NCBI GenBank assembly: GCA_012031965.1
Contig: JAAUSC010000004.1
Location: forward strand, 1 to 64,000
Length of the DNA: 64,000 nucleotides
Source of the DNA: Scytonema sp. RU_4_4
Lineage (GTDB): Bacteria > Cyanobacteriota > Cyanobacteriia > Cyanobacteriales > Nostocaceae
Direction: 5' to 3'
This document shows positions 43,887 through 58,650 of the stretch, one piece after another; position 1 is the stretch's first letter; the number at the start of each line of letters is the position of its first letter. A model generated the notes under the pieces. It ran no database searches, was not told the origin of the DNA, and saw only the letters and a list, made by a program, of their open reading frames with translations. Both the position numbers and the translations under genes were made by a program.

Positions 43887-44867
43887 ATGCAGTCCAACAC
43901 TCAAAATCTAAAATCTAAACTTGTTCCTCCACCTCTCAAACCGGGTGACCTATTACGAGTGATTGCTCCTAGTGGTGCTTTGCGAGAATTTGAGGCTTTT
44001 CACAAAGGAGTGGAAATTTGGCGATCGCGTGGCTATCGAGTAGAAATCATCCCAAAGATAGATGATAAATGGGGATATTTAGCTAGCAAAGATGAAAATA
44101 GATGCAAACAGCTAGTAACAGCATGGAAAGAGCCAGAGTGTCGCGGCGTTCTCTGTGCTAGAGGTGGTTTCGGTAGCACCCGTATCTTAGAAAATTGGAC
44201 TTGGGAAATAGAGGACAACGGGACAACGGGACAAGCGGAAGAAAATACTTTCTCATCTTCCCATCTCATCAGCTATCCCTCTTCTAAATGGCTCATTGGC
44301 TTTTCTGACATCACCGCGCTTTTGTGGAGCCTTTACACAGCAGGGATTTCCGGTGTTCATGGTCCTGTGCTGACAACTCTGGCTTCAGAGCCAGATTGGT
44401 CAATTCAAAGGTTATTTGATTGTGTAGAAGGTCGCCCTCTTGCACCTTTAAAGGGTTGTAGTTGGGGTGGAGGTGTGGTGAGCGGTATTCTGTTACCAGG
44501 TAATCTCACAGTGGCAACTCATCTGCTTGGTACGCCAATGCTACCAGATATCAATGGTGTGATTTTGGCATTGGAAGACGTGACAGAAGCTCCCTACCGC
44601 ATTGATCGAATGCTGACACAGTGGCGGATGAGTGGTGTGTTATCAAAAGTTCGTGGAATTGCGCTGGGTAGCTTTAGCCGTTGTGAAGCGCCTCCAAATG
44701 TTCCTAGCTTTAGCGTTGAGGAAGTGTTGCGCGATCGCCTAGGAGATTTAGGTATTCCCATTGTCTCAAACTTGCCTTTCGGTCATGAAGCTCCCAACGC
44801 AGCTTTACCAGTTGGTGTATTGGCAACTTTGGATGCAGAACAAGGAATTTTGAGTTTGGGAAATTAA
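43887..44867 (+). CDS. LD-carboxypeptidase (S66 family)
   Basis: Serine peptidase that removes the terminal D-alanine from murein tetrapeptides in the cytoplasm during wall recycling. 326 residues. Signatures: VIAPSG near the N-terminus, VLCARGGFGSTRIL, the nucleophile S140 in GFSDITALLWS, the ALEDVTEAPYRIDRML segment with the catalytic glutamate, and FGHEAPNAALPVG with the histidine. Residues about 109-133 (NGTTGQAEENTFSSS), coded at 44211-44285, are a low-complexity insertion not expected in the family, just before the nucleophile strand. ATG at 43887; a TTG one codon upstream is unlikely. Its last codons are repeated at 45172. Confidence 0.92.
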   Translation: MQSNTQNLKSKLVPPPLKPGDLLRVIAPSGALREFEAFHKGVEIWRSRGYRVEIIPKIDDKWGYLASKDENRCKQLVTAWKEPECRGVLCARGGFGSTRILENWTWEIEDNGTTGQAEENTFSSSHLISYPSSKWLIGFSDITALLWSLYTAGISGVHGPVLTTLASEPDWSIQRLFDCVEGRPLAPLKGCSWGGGVVSGILLPGNLTVATHLLGTPMLPDINGVILALEDVTEAPYRIDRMLTQWRMSGVLSKVRGIALGSFSRCEAPPNVPSFSVEEVLRDRLGDLGIPIVSNLPFGHEAPNAALPVGVLATLDAEQGILSLGN

Positions 44868-44950
44868 ACTGTTAGCTGGTAAAATCCTGATGGTGTAGCA
44901 GTTTCTCCAAAAGCAAGTGCATGACCATCAATCTCCAAATAGACGCAGCC
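44847..44950. repeat. Duplicated segment, copy 1
   Basis: Covers the end of the LD-carboxypeptidase gene (ATTTTGAGTTTGGG to the stop) and, from 44872, a 79-bp stretch that includes the leader and first codons of a VapB-type gene. Matches 45172-45193 and 45217-45295 with few differences. Confidence 0.85.
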
Positions 44951-45145
44951 TTAATTTAAGAAGCTCTAGCCCTTGGCAATCAACAAACAGAGCGTGATGT
45001 GGTAGAAGAAGCACTACGCGAATATGTGCAACGTCGCAAGCAACGAATGATACTGGATTTGTTTGGGACAATTGACTACGACTCTGATTACAACTACAAA
45101 CAGCAGCGACAGAGGCGTTTTCATAGCCGTGGGAGTGTCAATTAG
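44921..45145 (+). pseudogene. VapB-type antitoxin with nonsense mutation
   Basis: Reads MTINLQIDAALI, a TAA stop at codon 13, then EALALGNQQTERDVVEEALR, YVQRRKQRMILDLFGTIDYD and a basic end. This is the ribbon-helix-helix VapB antitoxin type (DUF2191-like) whose typical sequence has Glu at codon 13, so GAA to TAA is the likely change. The rest of the frame is intact. No toxin gene follows, only a duplicated leader and the orphan 593-residue gene, so the locus is a toxin-antitoxin relic. Confidence 0.8.
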
Positions 45146-45171
45146 GTGAAAGGAATACGGATTGCGTGGGG

Positions 45172-45295
45172 ATTTTGAGTTTGGGAAATTAAAGAAAACG
45201 GCAAGTAACACGATAATTAGCTGGTAAAATCCTGATGGCATAACAGTTTCTCCAAAAGCAAGTGCATGACCATCAATCTCCAAATAGACGAAGCC
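45172..45295. repeat. Duplicated segment, copy 2
   Basis: Second copy of the LD-carboxypeptidase end (45172-45193) and of the vapB leader and start (45217-45295). About 23 bp unique to this copy separate the two parts. The duplicated ATG at 45266 is the start of the following long gene. Confidence 0.85.
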
Positions 45296-47047
45296 TCTTG
45301 TATTAATTCTTTCCGACGCAATCTATTGGCTGAGGCTATACAACTATCTCGATTTCTGGCTAACGATAGTCATGCTGATGATGGTCGCAAACAACGATGC
45401 CAACTACGGCTACTTGAATTGCAGCAGGAGATTGTGAGAAAATTTGCCCATCCTATCCGCCGTGAAGCTTATCCTGTAGATGCAATTCCAATTGCAGTAC
45501 GCCAAGCCTTTGTTAAAGCGGTAGCTTTAGTAACACGCTATCACGAGTTGGGAGGTGAGGCTTGGAAAGGAACTTTATCTTCCCCTACCTTGAGTAAATA
45601 CAGTTTTGAGACGATTCCTGATGGATTGATTTCAGAAGCAACGCTAGCCCATCTGTGTAAAATTTTTCAAATTCCTGCTGAGGATGAGGAACACATTGCT
45701 ACCTTAGTGGAGACAGTTGATCGCCAAATTGCTCAACAAAAGCAGATTATCGAGGCTGTACTCACAGATGCAGGTCTGATACCTGACCTGAATGCAGCGA
45801 AGAGTCGTGCTGTTGTGGATCTGTTTCATCATCTGTTTGGGGAAATTCCCATGCCTGTGGAGGCGATTGACTGCATATATACGCAGACTCAAATTTTTTT
45901 TTGTATTGACTACCAGGATAGCCAACTGTGTAACCCAGATTGTTGGAATCGTTTGGAAGTGGCAGACCGGGTGAAATTGCAAGAGTTTCTGGAGTCGCTG
46001 GATAGGTCTACCTTTGAAAGGTTTCGCCATTTTCCCACTTTTAGCTTCTGTGACTCGGCTCAAATGAATCCAAAGTGGGTCGAACACCTAGCTGCATTAA
46101 CGGGCTTGACTCGCTTTCAAATCACTCAAGCTTTAAGCTGCTCAGTGAGTATACTTGCCACCCAAAGTGCAGAAAAATATTTGATTCATGACATTTGGGG
46201 ACACAATTGGCAGTCTGTGTTAACTCAGTTCAAGAGTGACTACGCCATATTGGCTAACTGCAATGAGCCGTTACGTGGAGGAAAGACAGCTTACACTTCT
46301 GACGGACCATTGACTTGCCGAGAACTCTTTCGGATAGAAGGAGAACAGGTGACAGTTGATCGAGACTTAGCGTGCTTGTTCTTCCACGGAGAAGCTCGGC
46401 AACGGTTAGGGCTTGTTTTCACTCATGTCATTGCAGAAATGATGGCTGATGTGGCAGAGTTTAAGTTTGTCAGAGACTTTCCTGAATTAATTGAGCAGTT
46501 GCCTTGTTCTTCCGTCTTTAAAAATGTACCCACCAAGTTGGACTTGGAGTTAAGCGATCTATACTTCTTATTTTTACAGGTTTTGCAACCCCTACTAGAA
46601 GTCAAGTTATCAGGATTTGAGGAGTCTGTACTAGAGTCCGATGTGCTAGCAGATTGGGCTCAGTTGGGATATCCAGTCCAATCATTGGAGTTACGCTCTA
46701 GTTTAAAAGGAGCGATCGCCCAACTGTTTCAAATTTTTGTGCAGGAATATAACGCCACTTACCTGCCTACCATAACGAGCAAAATGGGTGTTTTTGCCAA
46801 AATAGTTAGCAATCTGCTCTACTTACAAAATGCAGTGAACGAACTCTGCACTGATCCAACAATCAAGACTCTATCTCATTTTCCTTTTCAAGAGCTACTG
46901 CTCGTGTTTATTGGCAATTACTGGTCCAACGATAGCTATGCTGAGTTTTGGGAAGTCGATGATGCGATCTGCGCTCCGCGCAGCAGCGAAGCTATCGCCA
47001 ATGACTTCCTCCCATGTTGGCAGTACTTGACATTAACGATTTTTTGA
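45266..47047 (+). CDS. Orphan 593-residue protein, unknown function, with HDxWGH and ExxADxxE motifs
   Basis: I do not recognise this protein. The first nine residues (MTINLQIDE) are the vapB start carried in by a duplication; the protein proper begins around SCINSFRRNLLAEAIQLSRF. It is soluble, mostly alpha-helical and has no signal. A conserved-looking pair is H308-D-I-W-G-H313 and H387-VIAE391-MMAD395-VAE398, spaced like metal ligands of a helical metalloenzyme, with LTCRELFRIEGEQ and HGEARQRLGL between. The C-terminal third is hydrophobic-helical. The N-terminal third contains a coiled-coil-like segment (KQRCQLRLLELQQEIVRK). Similar proteins may exist in other cyanobacteria, but no function can be claimed. 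Confidence 0.6.
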   Translation: MTINLQIDEASCINSFRRNLLAEAIQLSRFLANDSHADDGRKQRCQLRLLELQQEIVRKFAHPIRREAYPVDAIPIAVRQAFVKAVALVTRYHELGGEAWKGTLSSPTLSKYSFETIPDGLISEATLAHLCKIFQIPAEDEEHIATLVETVDRQIAQQKQIIEAVLTDAGLIPDLNAAKSRAVVDLFHHLFGEIPMPVEAIDCIYTQTQIFFCIDYQDSQLCNPDCWNRLEVADRVKLQEFLESLDRSTFERFRHFPTFSFCDSAQMNPKWVEHLAALTGLTRFQITQALSCSVSILATQSAEKYLIHDIWGHNWQSVLTQFKSDYAILANCNEPLRGGKTAYTSDGPLTCRELFRIEGEQVTVDRDLACLFFHGEARQRLGLVFTHVIAEMMADVAEFKFVRDFPELIEQLPCSSVFKNVPTKLDLELSDLYFLFLQVLQPLLEVKLSGFEESVLESDVLADWAQLGYPVQSLELRSSLKGAIAQLFQIFVQEYNATYLPTITSKMGVFAKIVSNLLYLQNAVNELCTDPTIKTLSHFPFQELLLVFIGNYWSNDSYAEFWEVDDAICAPRSSEAIANDFLPCWQYLTLTIF

Positions 47048-47398
47048 CATTTTCAAGACAGGTCTATTGTTTAACCAAAAAGAACTCAGAATCATCCGTC
47101 ATATCAAGTCCGGTTAATCACTTATAAAAAAAATATGTCTGTCATACTGAGCGAAACGTAGTGTAGCGAAGTATCTCGGAGATTCTTCACTTTGTTCAGA
47201 ATGACAATTAATCAGCCGGACTTGATATCAGAAGTCAGCTTGGGACTTCTGTACGACGCTCGTGATTCGTGATGTGGTTTAAATCCCCACCGTCGCTTGC
47301 GGTGTCTACAATTGGTTTGGTGCTGCACCGAGCCAATCATATTGCTGTTAGCGCAGCGGGGCGTAGCCCGTTCTGCGTTCTGACCTATGTGTTCTTCT
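47048..47398. other. Intergenic region with a MITE-like element
   Basis: Contains the inverted-repeat element at 47101-47228 and, from 47270, GC-rich REP-like sequence (CCCACCGTCGCTTGCGGTG, GCGGGGCGTAGCCCG). No gene. It separates the orphan gene from the convergent chemosensory operon. Confidence 0.55.
47101..47228. mobile_element. MITE-like element of 128 bp
   Basis: Imperfect inverted repeats bound it: ATATCAAGTCCGG-TTAAT on the left and ATTAATCAGCCGGACTTGATAT on the right (47207-47228). The interior has GTCATACTGAGCGAAACG, shared with the 34652 element. No coding capacity. Confidence 0.65.
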
Positions 47399-58211: not shown

Positions 58212-58650
58212 AGGTCAATCAGTTAGGTGGGGAGGCTTTCAGCTGATAGCTATTCAACCTCAAGCATCTTCAACTGATTCAGTTGAAGGTACCTGTTCCA
58301 AAGGTAGGTGGGCGATGAACGTGCTGGGATCAATCGCACTATTGAAGTCAATATACTCCTAAATTGCTTTGAAAAGTCAGAGCTTAATATAGAATTCGCA
58401 CAATCTTTACACCAGGGATATTATGAGTGTCATCACTCTGAAGATATAAGTTATATGAACCAAAAGGAACATAGTTATCAACGAGATTTGACACTCCCAC
58501 GGCTACCACTCCAAGTCATCCACCACTCGCACACTCGTCATTCTGACTCCTTGGCGGAGCGTCTGGTGGCTCCGCTCCTTGGCGGAGCGTAGGCAGGGGG
58601 AACGCTCCTGGCTCCTGACTCCTGACTACTTCTGCAGGTCATTGACATAC
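58212..58650. promoter_or_regulatory. Upstream region of the chemosensory operon
   Basis: About 440 bp between the operon's first gene and the convergent-side end of the radical SAM gene. The part near 58212-58330 should hold the operon promoter; no clear boxes can be called. From 58480 it contains CCTTGGCGGAGCG repeats and an ACTCCTGACTACT stretch. Small frames here are not supported as genes. Confidence 0.4.

What the first reader, a model, noticed from the sequence alone, without database searches (positions are those of the whole stretch)
44847..45295. Duplication hands the vapB start region to an unrelated long gene
A segment holding the end of the LD-carboxypeptidase gene plus the leader, ATG and first nine codons of a VapB-type antitoxin is present twice (44847-44950, 45172-45295). 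The first copy leads into a vapB with a stop at codon 13. The second leads straight into a 593-codon gene, which therefore seems to start with the antitoxin's own start codon and leader. This is an unusual way to gain expression signals and couples it to the decay of a toxin-antitoxin locus.
Basis: partly seen in the sequence, partly recalled or inferred. Interest (0 to 1): 0.6.

Follow-up and report, generated by a model that had tools for sequence, protein, structure and literature searches.

The report
Gene borrowing an antitoxin's start region
In a filamentous cyanobacterium, a partial copy of an antitoxin gene's control region and start codon sits directly in front of a rare, uncharacterised gene and probably starts it; this looks like ordinary promoter capture through a duplication, and a close relative has already broken the arrangement.

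Summary
The repeat is real. An 80-nt block (leader, ATG and first ten vapB codons) occurs at 44872-44951 and 45217-45296 (95% identical). A separate 25-nt block (end of the LD-carboxypeptidase gene, LDC) occurs at 44844-44868 and 45169-45193. Their offsets differ (345 and 325 nt), so it is not one clean segment. Brasilonema sp. UFV-L1, same genus, has the same locus: LDC, intact vapB, truncated vapC, second LDC end, mobile-element patchwork, second leader copy, orthologue of the 593-codon gene. The duplication and junction therefore predate that split and the window's vapB nonsense mutation. None of nine aligned orthologues outside the genus begins MTINLQIDE, so the first codons here are vapB-derived. 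In the window the only start codon before the conserved domain is the vapB ATG. In UFV-L1 that frame has no ATG (a 4-nt insertion, by alignment), and a downstream in-frame ATG (ATT in the window) can take over. Both genomes keep the vapB -10-like TAAAAT; the -35-like hexamer of copy 1 is displaced in copy 2. No expression data exist. Verdict: real, partly as interpreted; promoter and start capture of a known kind.

The parts
43887..44867 (+). LD-carboxypeptidase (peptidase S66) gene; its last 24 nt lie in the first LDC-end repeat
   Evidence: Pfam S66 and S66C; ORF
44844..44868 (+). LDC-end repeat, copy 1 (contains a -35-like TTGGGA at 44856-44861)
44872..44951 (+). vapB leader + ATG + first ten codons, copy 1 (TAAAAT at 44880-44885)
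44921..45118 (+). vapB antitoxin gene, broken by TAA at codon 13 (44957-44959)
   Evidence: own-genome row (95% to the sister's intact vapB, 1 TAA)
45118..45141 (+). remnant of a TnpB/IS605-type element end, lying where vapC would be expected
   Evidence: its 14-nt core occurs 13 times in the own genome including this one (reversed control 0); same end directly behind a TnpB gene in L104
45146..45193 (+). segment downstream of former vapC plus LDC-end repeat copy 2 (45169-45193); 98% identical to the sister genome
45194..45216 (+). 23 nt where copy 1 has 3; resembles the right side of the mobile-element insert in the sister genome
45217..45296 (+). vapB leader + ATG + first ten codons, copy 2 (TAAAAT at 45225-45230)
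45266..47047 (+). 593-codon gene: codons 1-10 vapB-derived, from codon 11 on the uncharacterised cyanobacterial protein

Best explanation
A vapBC module sits directly behind an LD-carboxypeptidase gene. In the common ancestor of the window genome and Brasilonema sp. UFV-L1, parts of this region (LDC end, vapB leader, vapB 5' end) were duplicated downstream. A rare, probably horizontally acquired gene came to lie in frame behind codon 10 of the second vapB copy and lost its own first codons. In the window it is most likely translated from the borrowed vapB ATG, with the vapB leader and -10-like box in front. The borrowed residues are a short, probably disordered tail and only serve initiation. 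Later events differ by lineage. The window lost vapB (TAA at codon 13) and vapC (deletion reaching a TnpB-type element end). UFV-L1 kept vapB, has a truncated vapC, carries mobile-element debris between the two repeat blocks, and lost the vapB-frame ATG, so that its orthologue must start further downstream. Shown: the repeats, shared junction, different N-termini of other orthologues, frames and start codons, purifying selection on the gene. Inferred: horizontal origin, that transcription starts at the borrowed -10, that the vapB ATG is really used, and the order of events before the split.
For: Repeats. Same junction in UFV-L1 with intact vapB. Eleven sequences aligned: 9 of 9 relatives outside the genus have other N-termini, and homology starts near window residue 12-20. 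The open frame has no start codon in the ten codons before the vapB ATG; the next ones are TTG codon 21, inside the conserved LLAEA-like motif, TTG 52 and GTG 57 (motif). LDC directly upstream of vapB in two genomes of another genus, G437 and G461, so copy 1 is the likely original place. LDC-tail fragments recur behind vapB in G437. TAAAAT in the expected 45-nt stretch in 11 of 29 vapB loci against 75 of 1978 background stretches. dN/dS of the gene from codon 13 on, window against UFV-L1, is 0.29 (bootstrap 0.21-0.40). Residues 1-11 have pLDDT under 50, first helix 15-33. The gene is found in 3 of 217 genomes of the family.
Against: No transcript or protein data. In UFV-L1 the vapB start is lost, so the arrangement is not needed for the gene to persist. 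The -35-like hexamer of copy 1 is displaced in copy 2; the best pair of hexamers with TAAAAT there matches 7 of 12, and another pair not using it (ATTAAA / GATAAT, 45188-45217) matches 8 of 12. The promoter scan finds one site in the region, in copy 1, where shuffles give 1.2. The first quarter of the gene has dN/dS 0.69. The sequence does not say whether codon 13 was ATG (as in UFV-L1) or ATT (as here) in the ancestor.
Confidence: 0.72

Rival explanations
1. The vapB fragment is only a passive 5' remnant. The gene natively started at the ATG aligned with codon 13 (as in UFV-L1). In the window that ATG became ATT, and the gene is either started accidentally from the vapB ATG or is on its way to decay.
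For: UFV-L1 has ATG where the window has ATT; its vapB-frame start is lost; dN/dS is highest in the first quarter of the gene.
Against: The gene is open over 593 codons with overall dN/dS 0.29. In 8 of the 9 orthologues outside the genus the start that I chose lies 11-18 residues before the LLAEA-like motif (25 in the ninth, L036), whereas the codon-13 ATG lies 7 before it, which makes it look secondary. The vapB part of copy 2 is identical to UFV-L1 copy 1 over its 30 coding nt.
Confidence: 0.2
2. Copy 2 was refreshed by gene conversion from copy 1 in the window lineage after it had decayed, which re-created the in-frame ATG.
For: Copy 2 of the window is a mosaic: UFV-L1-copy-2-like on both sides, copy-1-like in the 79 nt between. 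Against UFV-L1 copy 1 it has 3 mismatches, while UFV-L1 copy 2 has 7 mismatches and 3 gaps.
Against: The copy-1-like state around the ATG is also that of the outgroup leaders L042 and L044, so plain retention in the window and decay in UFV-L1 explains it without conversion.
Confidence: 0.2
3. The repeat is an assembly artefact.
For: The genome is a 400-contig draft.
Against: The same two-copy structure with its own differences is in another assembly.
Confidence: 0.02

Closest known systems
Promoter capture / 5' gene fusion in experimental evolution (Pseudomonas fluorescens wrinkly spreaders, PMC4395868; passages read)
   Same: a gene gains expression signals by an in-frame joining to the 5' part of an upstream gene
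   Different: there by deletions observed in the laboratory and with measured transcription; here a natural duplication at a TA locus, expression unknown
Tandem duplication that activates horizontally acquired genes (PMC11111574; abstract and outline read); the E. coli citrate case is cited in PMC4395868
   Same: a duplication is linked to the activation of a newly acquired gene
   Different: there a laboratory system with selection; here the start codon and ten codons of a neighbour came along, and selection is not shown
VapBC type II toxin-antitoxin locus (Pfam VapB_antitoxin PF09957)
   Same: copy 1 is a remnant of such a locus
   Different: copy 2 contains only the leader and ten codons, no antitoxin

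Membership tests
VapBC toxin-antitoxin locus | VapB antitoxin domain | tested here: met
   copy 1 only, read with X at the stop: PF09957 E 3.6e-12; frame broken at codon 13
VapBC toxin-antitoxin locus | adjacent intact VapC toxin gene | tested here: not met
   intact VapC of L044 against window 44900-45300: best E 0.08. In UFV-L1 32 codons remain (residues 1-23 matched with E 1.2e-8)
Promoter/start capture by duplication | 5' signals duplicated from an unrelated neighbour gene and placed in frame in front of the acceptor gene | tested here: met
Promoter/start capture by duplication | acceptor gene's relatives lack that 5' end | tested here: met
   9 of 9 aligned orthologues outside the genus; UFV-L1 shares it as DNA but not as a start
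Promoter/start capture by duplication | transcription and translation really start in the captured region | not testable with these tools
   needs RNA 5' ends and N-terminal peptides
Named family for the 593-residue protein | match above curated cut-off in Pfam or NCBIfam | tested here: not met
   window protein: only PF18747 at 17.3 bits, cut-off 25; none in NCBIfam. Among the 11 members, one weak match each to Rnk_N (E 0.066) and DnaD_dom (E 0.076)

The most novel reading that the evidence does not exclude
The borrowed leader still carries a VapB-responsive operator. The acquired gene would then be wired into toxin-antitoxin autoregulation: derepressed when VapB is degraded under stress (through the intact neighbouring vapB in UFV-L1, or a related vapB elsewhere in the window genome).
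Probability: 0.07. Interest if true: 0.55.

Novelty: new member of a known kind. Interest (0 to 1): 0.3.

Why it matters
It is a natural example of how a rare, probably acquired gene can obtain a promoter and start codon from a decaying toxin-antitoxin module, with a sister genome in which the borrowed start is lost again. It also suggests that an automatic gene call here would include ten residues that do not belong to the protein family.

Tried and rejected
Single-segment duplication: rejected, the two blocks have offsets of 345 and 325 nt and in UFV-L1 lie about 800 nt apart. UFV-L1 copy 2 as the ancestral form: considered from a few letters shared with the vapB of G005, dropped after the wider leader alignment. 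LDC end as part of a vapBC cassette new to the genus: considered because the homology of five other genomes of the genus stops at 44853-44854 (two of the five read); dropped because G437 and G461 have vapB behind LDC and the G437 LDC gene ends in the same TTTTGAGTTTGGGA.

Function of the 593-residue protein: Pfam and NCBIfam, plasmid records (no match) and a structure model (mean pLDDT 76.1) compared with PDB (no match with E 0.001 or less, best Z 7.6, rmsd 3.0, 61 residues of a helical stretch, within the range that the tool calls common) gave no family or fold. A shared fold is not excluded.

My first idea that the element-end repeat in L012 follows a TnpB gene was wrong (another ORF, not identified by a search); in L104 a TnpB gene does precede the same end. 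The first dN/dS script had a frame error for this gene and was replaced. The binomial printed rests on a hand count of 15 that one search does not bear out (3 against 10 events); I do not use it. Rfam found nothing in L019. Literature searches (with 1, 0, 1 and 8 papers listed, 10 of 61 listed) showed, by titles and starts of abstracts, no paper on capture of an antitoxin's start region; this library is partial.

Full report
Observation. The repeat finder gives an 80-nt pair, 44872-44951 / 45217-45296, 95% identical, and a 25-nt pair, 44844-44868 / 45169-45193, 96% identical. Their spacings differ (345 and 325 nt): between the blocks copy 1 has 3 nt and copy 2 has 23. Copy 1 runs into a VapB reading frame with TAA at codon 13 (Pfam VapB_antitoxin E 3.6e-12 with X at the stop). 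Copy 2 runs in frame into a 593-residue ORF, 45266-47047.

Sister genome. Of the 7 genomes held for the genus, 2 hold the 593-codon gene: the own one and G006. G006 is Brasilonema sp. UFV-L1. Its order is: LDC, intact 66-residue vapB, a 32-codon vapC remnant whose residues 1-23 match the start of an intact VapC (E 1.2e-8) and whose end resembles the VapC end, a second LDC end, about 800 nt of debris, a second vapB leader, the orthologue. The debris is a patchwork of dispersed repeats with 44 to 62 matches in each of the 7 genomes. It contains what I read as the N-terminus of an RRXRR (IscB-like) protein; a longer copy in the own genome, G000:C177, matches Pfam RRXRR with E 1.1e-47. The junction of vapB codon 10 with the 593-codon gene is the same in both genomes, so it predates their split. 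The window's nonsense mutation in vapB is younger, as UFV-L1 and the other 30 vapB rows have a sense codon there.

Where the module came from. Two genomes of another genus, G437 (L042) and G461 (L044), have vapB behind LDC; of the 29 vapB loci L039-L067 these were the two with an LDC match within the fetched flanks. L042 has two further LDC-tail fragments downstream of vapB, so partial duplications at this locus are not unique to the window. The other five genomes of the genus lack the 593-codon gene, and their homology to the window stops at the LDC end.

Start of the gene. None of the nine outside the genus begins with MTINLQIDE. In eight of the nine the start that I chose lies 11-18 residues before a conserved LLAEA-like motif; in L036 it lies 25 before. 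In the window the open frame has ten codons before the vapB ATG with no start codon; after it the next ones are TTG codon 21, inside the motif, TTG 52 and GTG 57. So the vapB ATG is the likely start. In UFV-L1 the open frame begins just behind a TAA at the vapB start and has no ATG until the one aligned with window codon 13 (575 residues). The alignment shows this as a 4-nt insertion behind the ATG; those place the gaps differently, with the same consequence. The AlphaFold model has pLDDT under 50 for residues 1-11 and its first helix at 15-33, so the borrowed residues are probably a tail.

Expression signals. TAAAAT lies 41 nt before both ATGs in the window. In 11 of 29 vapB loci it occurs in the stretch 20-65 nt upstream, against 75 of 1978 stretches of the same length cut from these loci; 6 of the 29 have it at 41-42. 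Copy 1 also has TTGGGA 18 nt before it, 9 of 12 matches; shuffles give 1.2 sites per region, so this is weak. In copy 2 that hexamer is displaced; the best pair with TAAAAT has 7 of 12, and a pair without it 8 of 12. Whether copy 2 is an active promoter is open.

Selection. From codon 13 on, window against UFV-L1, dN 0.072, dS 0.246, ratio 0.29 (0.21-0.40); LDC 0.20. By quarters the ratio is 0.69, 0.26, 0.13, 0.34, so the first quarter is the least constrained. Against UFV-L1 copy 1, window copy 2 has 3 mismatches in 79 nt; UFV-L1 copy 2 has 7 mismatches and 3 gaps. Outgroup leaders L042 and L044 share the copy-1 state around the ATG. Retention in the window and decay in UFV-L1 is the simplest reading; gene conversion in the window is not excluded.

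Fate of the toxin gene. An intact VapC finds nothing better than E 0.08 in window 44900-45300. Where vapC would be expected lie 24 nt (45118-45141) that match the end of a TnpB/IS605-type element. The 14-nt core occurs 13 times in the genome, 0 for the reversed control, and in L104 it directly follows a TnpB gene. UFV-L1 lost most of vapC differently. Loss of vapB is therefore later than, and separable from, the start capture; for vapC, damaged in both genomes, the order is open.

The protein. It is an uncharacterised cyanobacterial protein found in 3 of 217 genomes of the family. In a sample of 386 genomes of the phylum 6 matched at E 0.01: the own genome, three strong and two weak with stops. 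Seven loci came from genome contigs, one of them UFV-L1. The patchy presence suggests horizontal gain; no tree was made. In L033 an OmpA-domain gene lies upstream and an oxygenase-like gene downstream.

Conclusion. The single-segment picture and the coupling to decay of this vapB are not. As a kind it is promoter and start capture after duplication, known from laboratory evolution (PMC4395868, passages read; PMC11111574, abstract and outline read). Interest is moderate to low.

Noticed in passing
46967-46993: In-frame insertion of nine codons (ICAPRSSEA) near the end of the 593-codon gene, absent from all ten aligned relatives; it looks like an inserted dispersed repeat, which was not searched for.
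   Followed up: no
47101-47228: Inverted repeat with arms of 23 nt (83%) around 82 nt, MITE-like, just downstream of the gene.
   Followed up: no
58488-58501: Second copy in the window of the TnpB-type element-end core, minus strand.
   Followed up: no
L019 4420-5240: UFV-L1 debris of an IscB-like (RRXRR) element and several dispersed repeats between the two repeat blocks.
   Followed up: partly
L101 516-1604: RRXRR (IscB-like) gene of 363 codons in the own genome, contig C177.
   Followed up: partly
L042 1656-1760 and 2172-2372: LD-carboxypeptidase tail fragments repeated behind vapB in another genus, a sign of recurrent duplication at this locus.
   Followed up: partly
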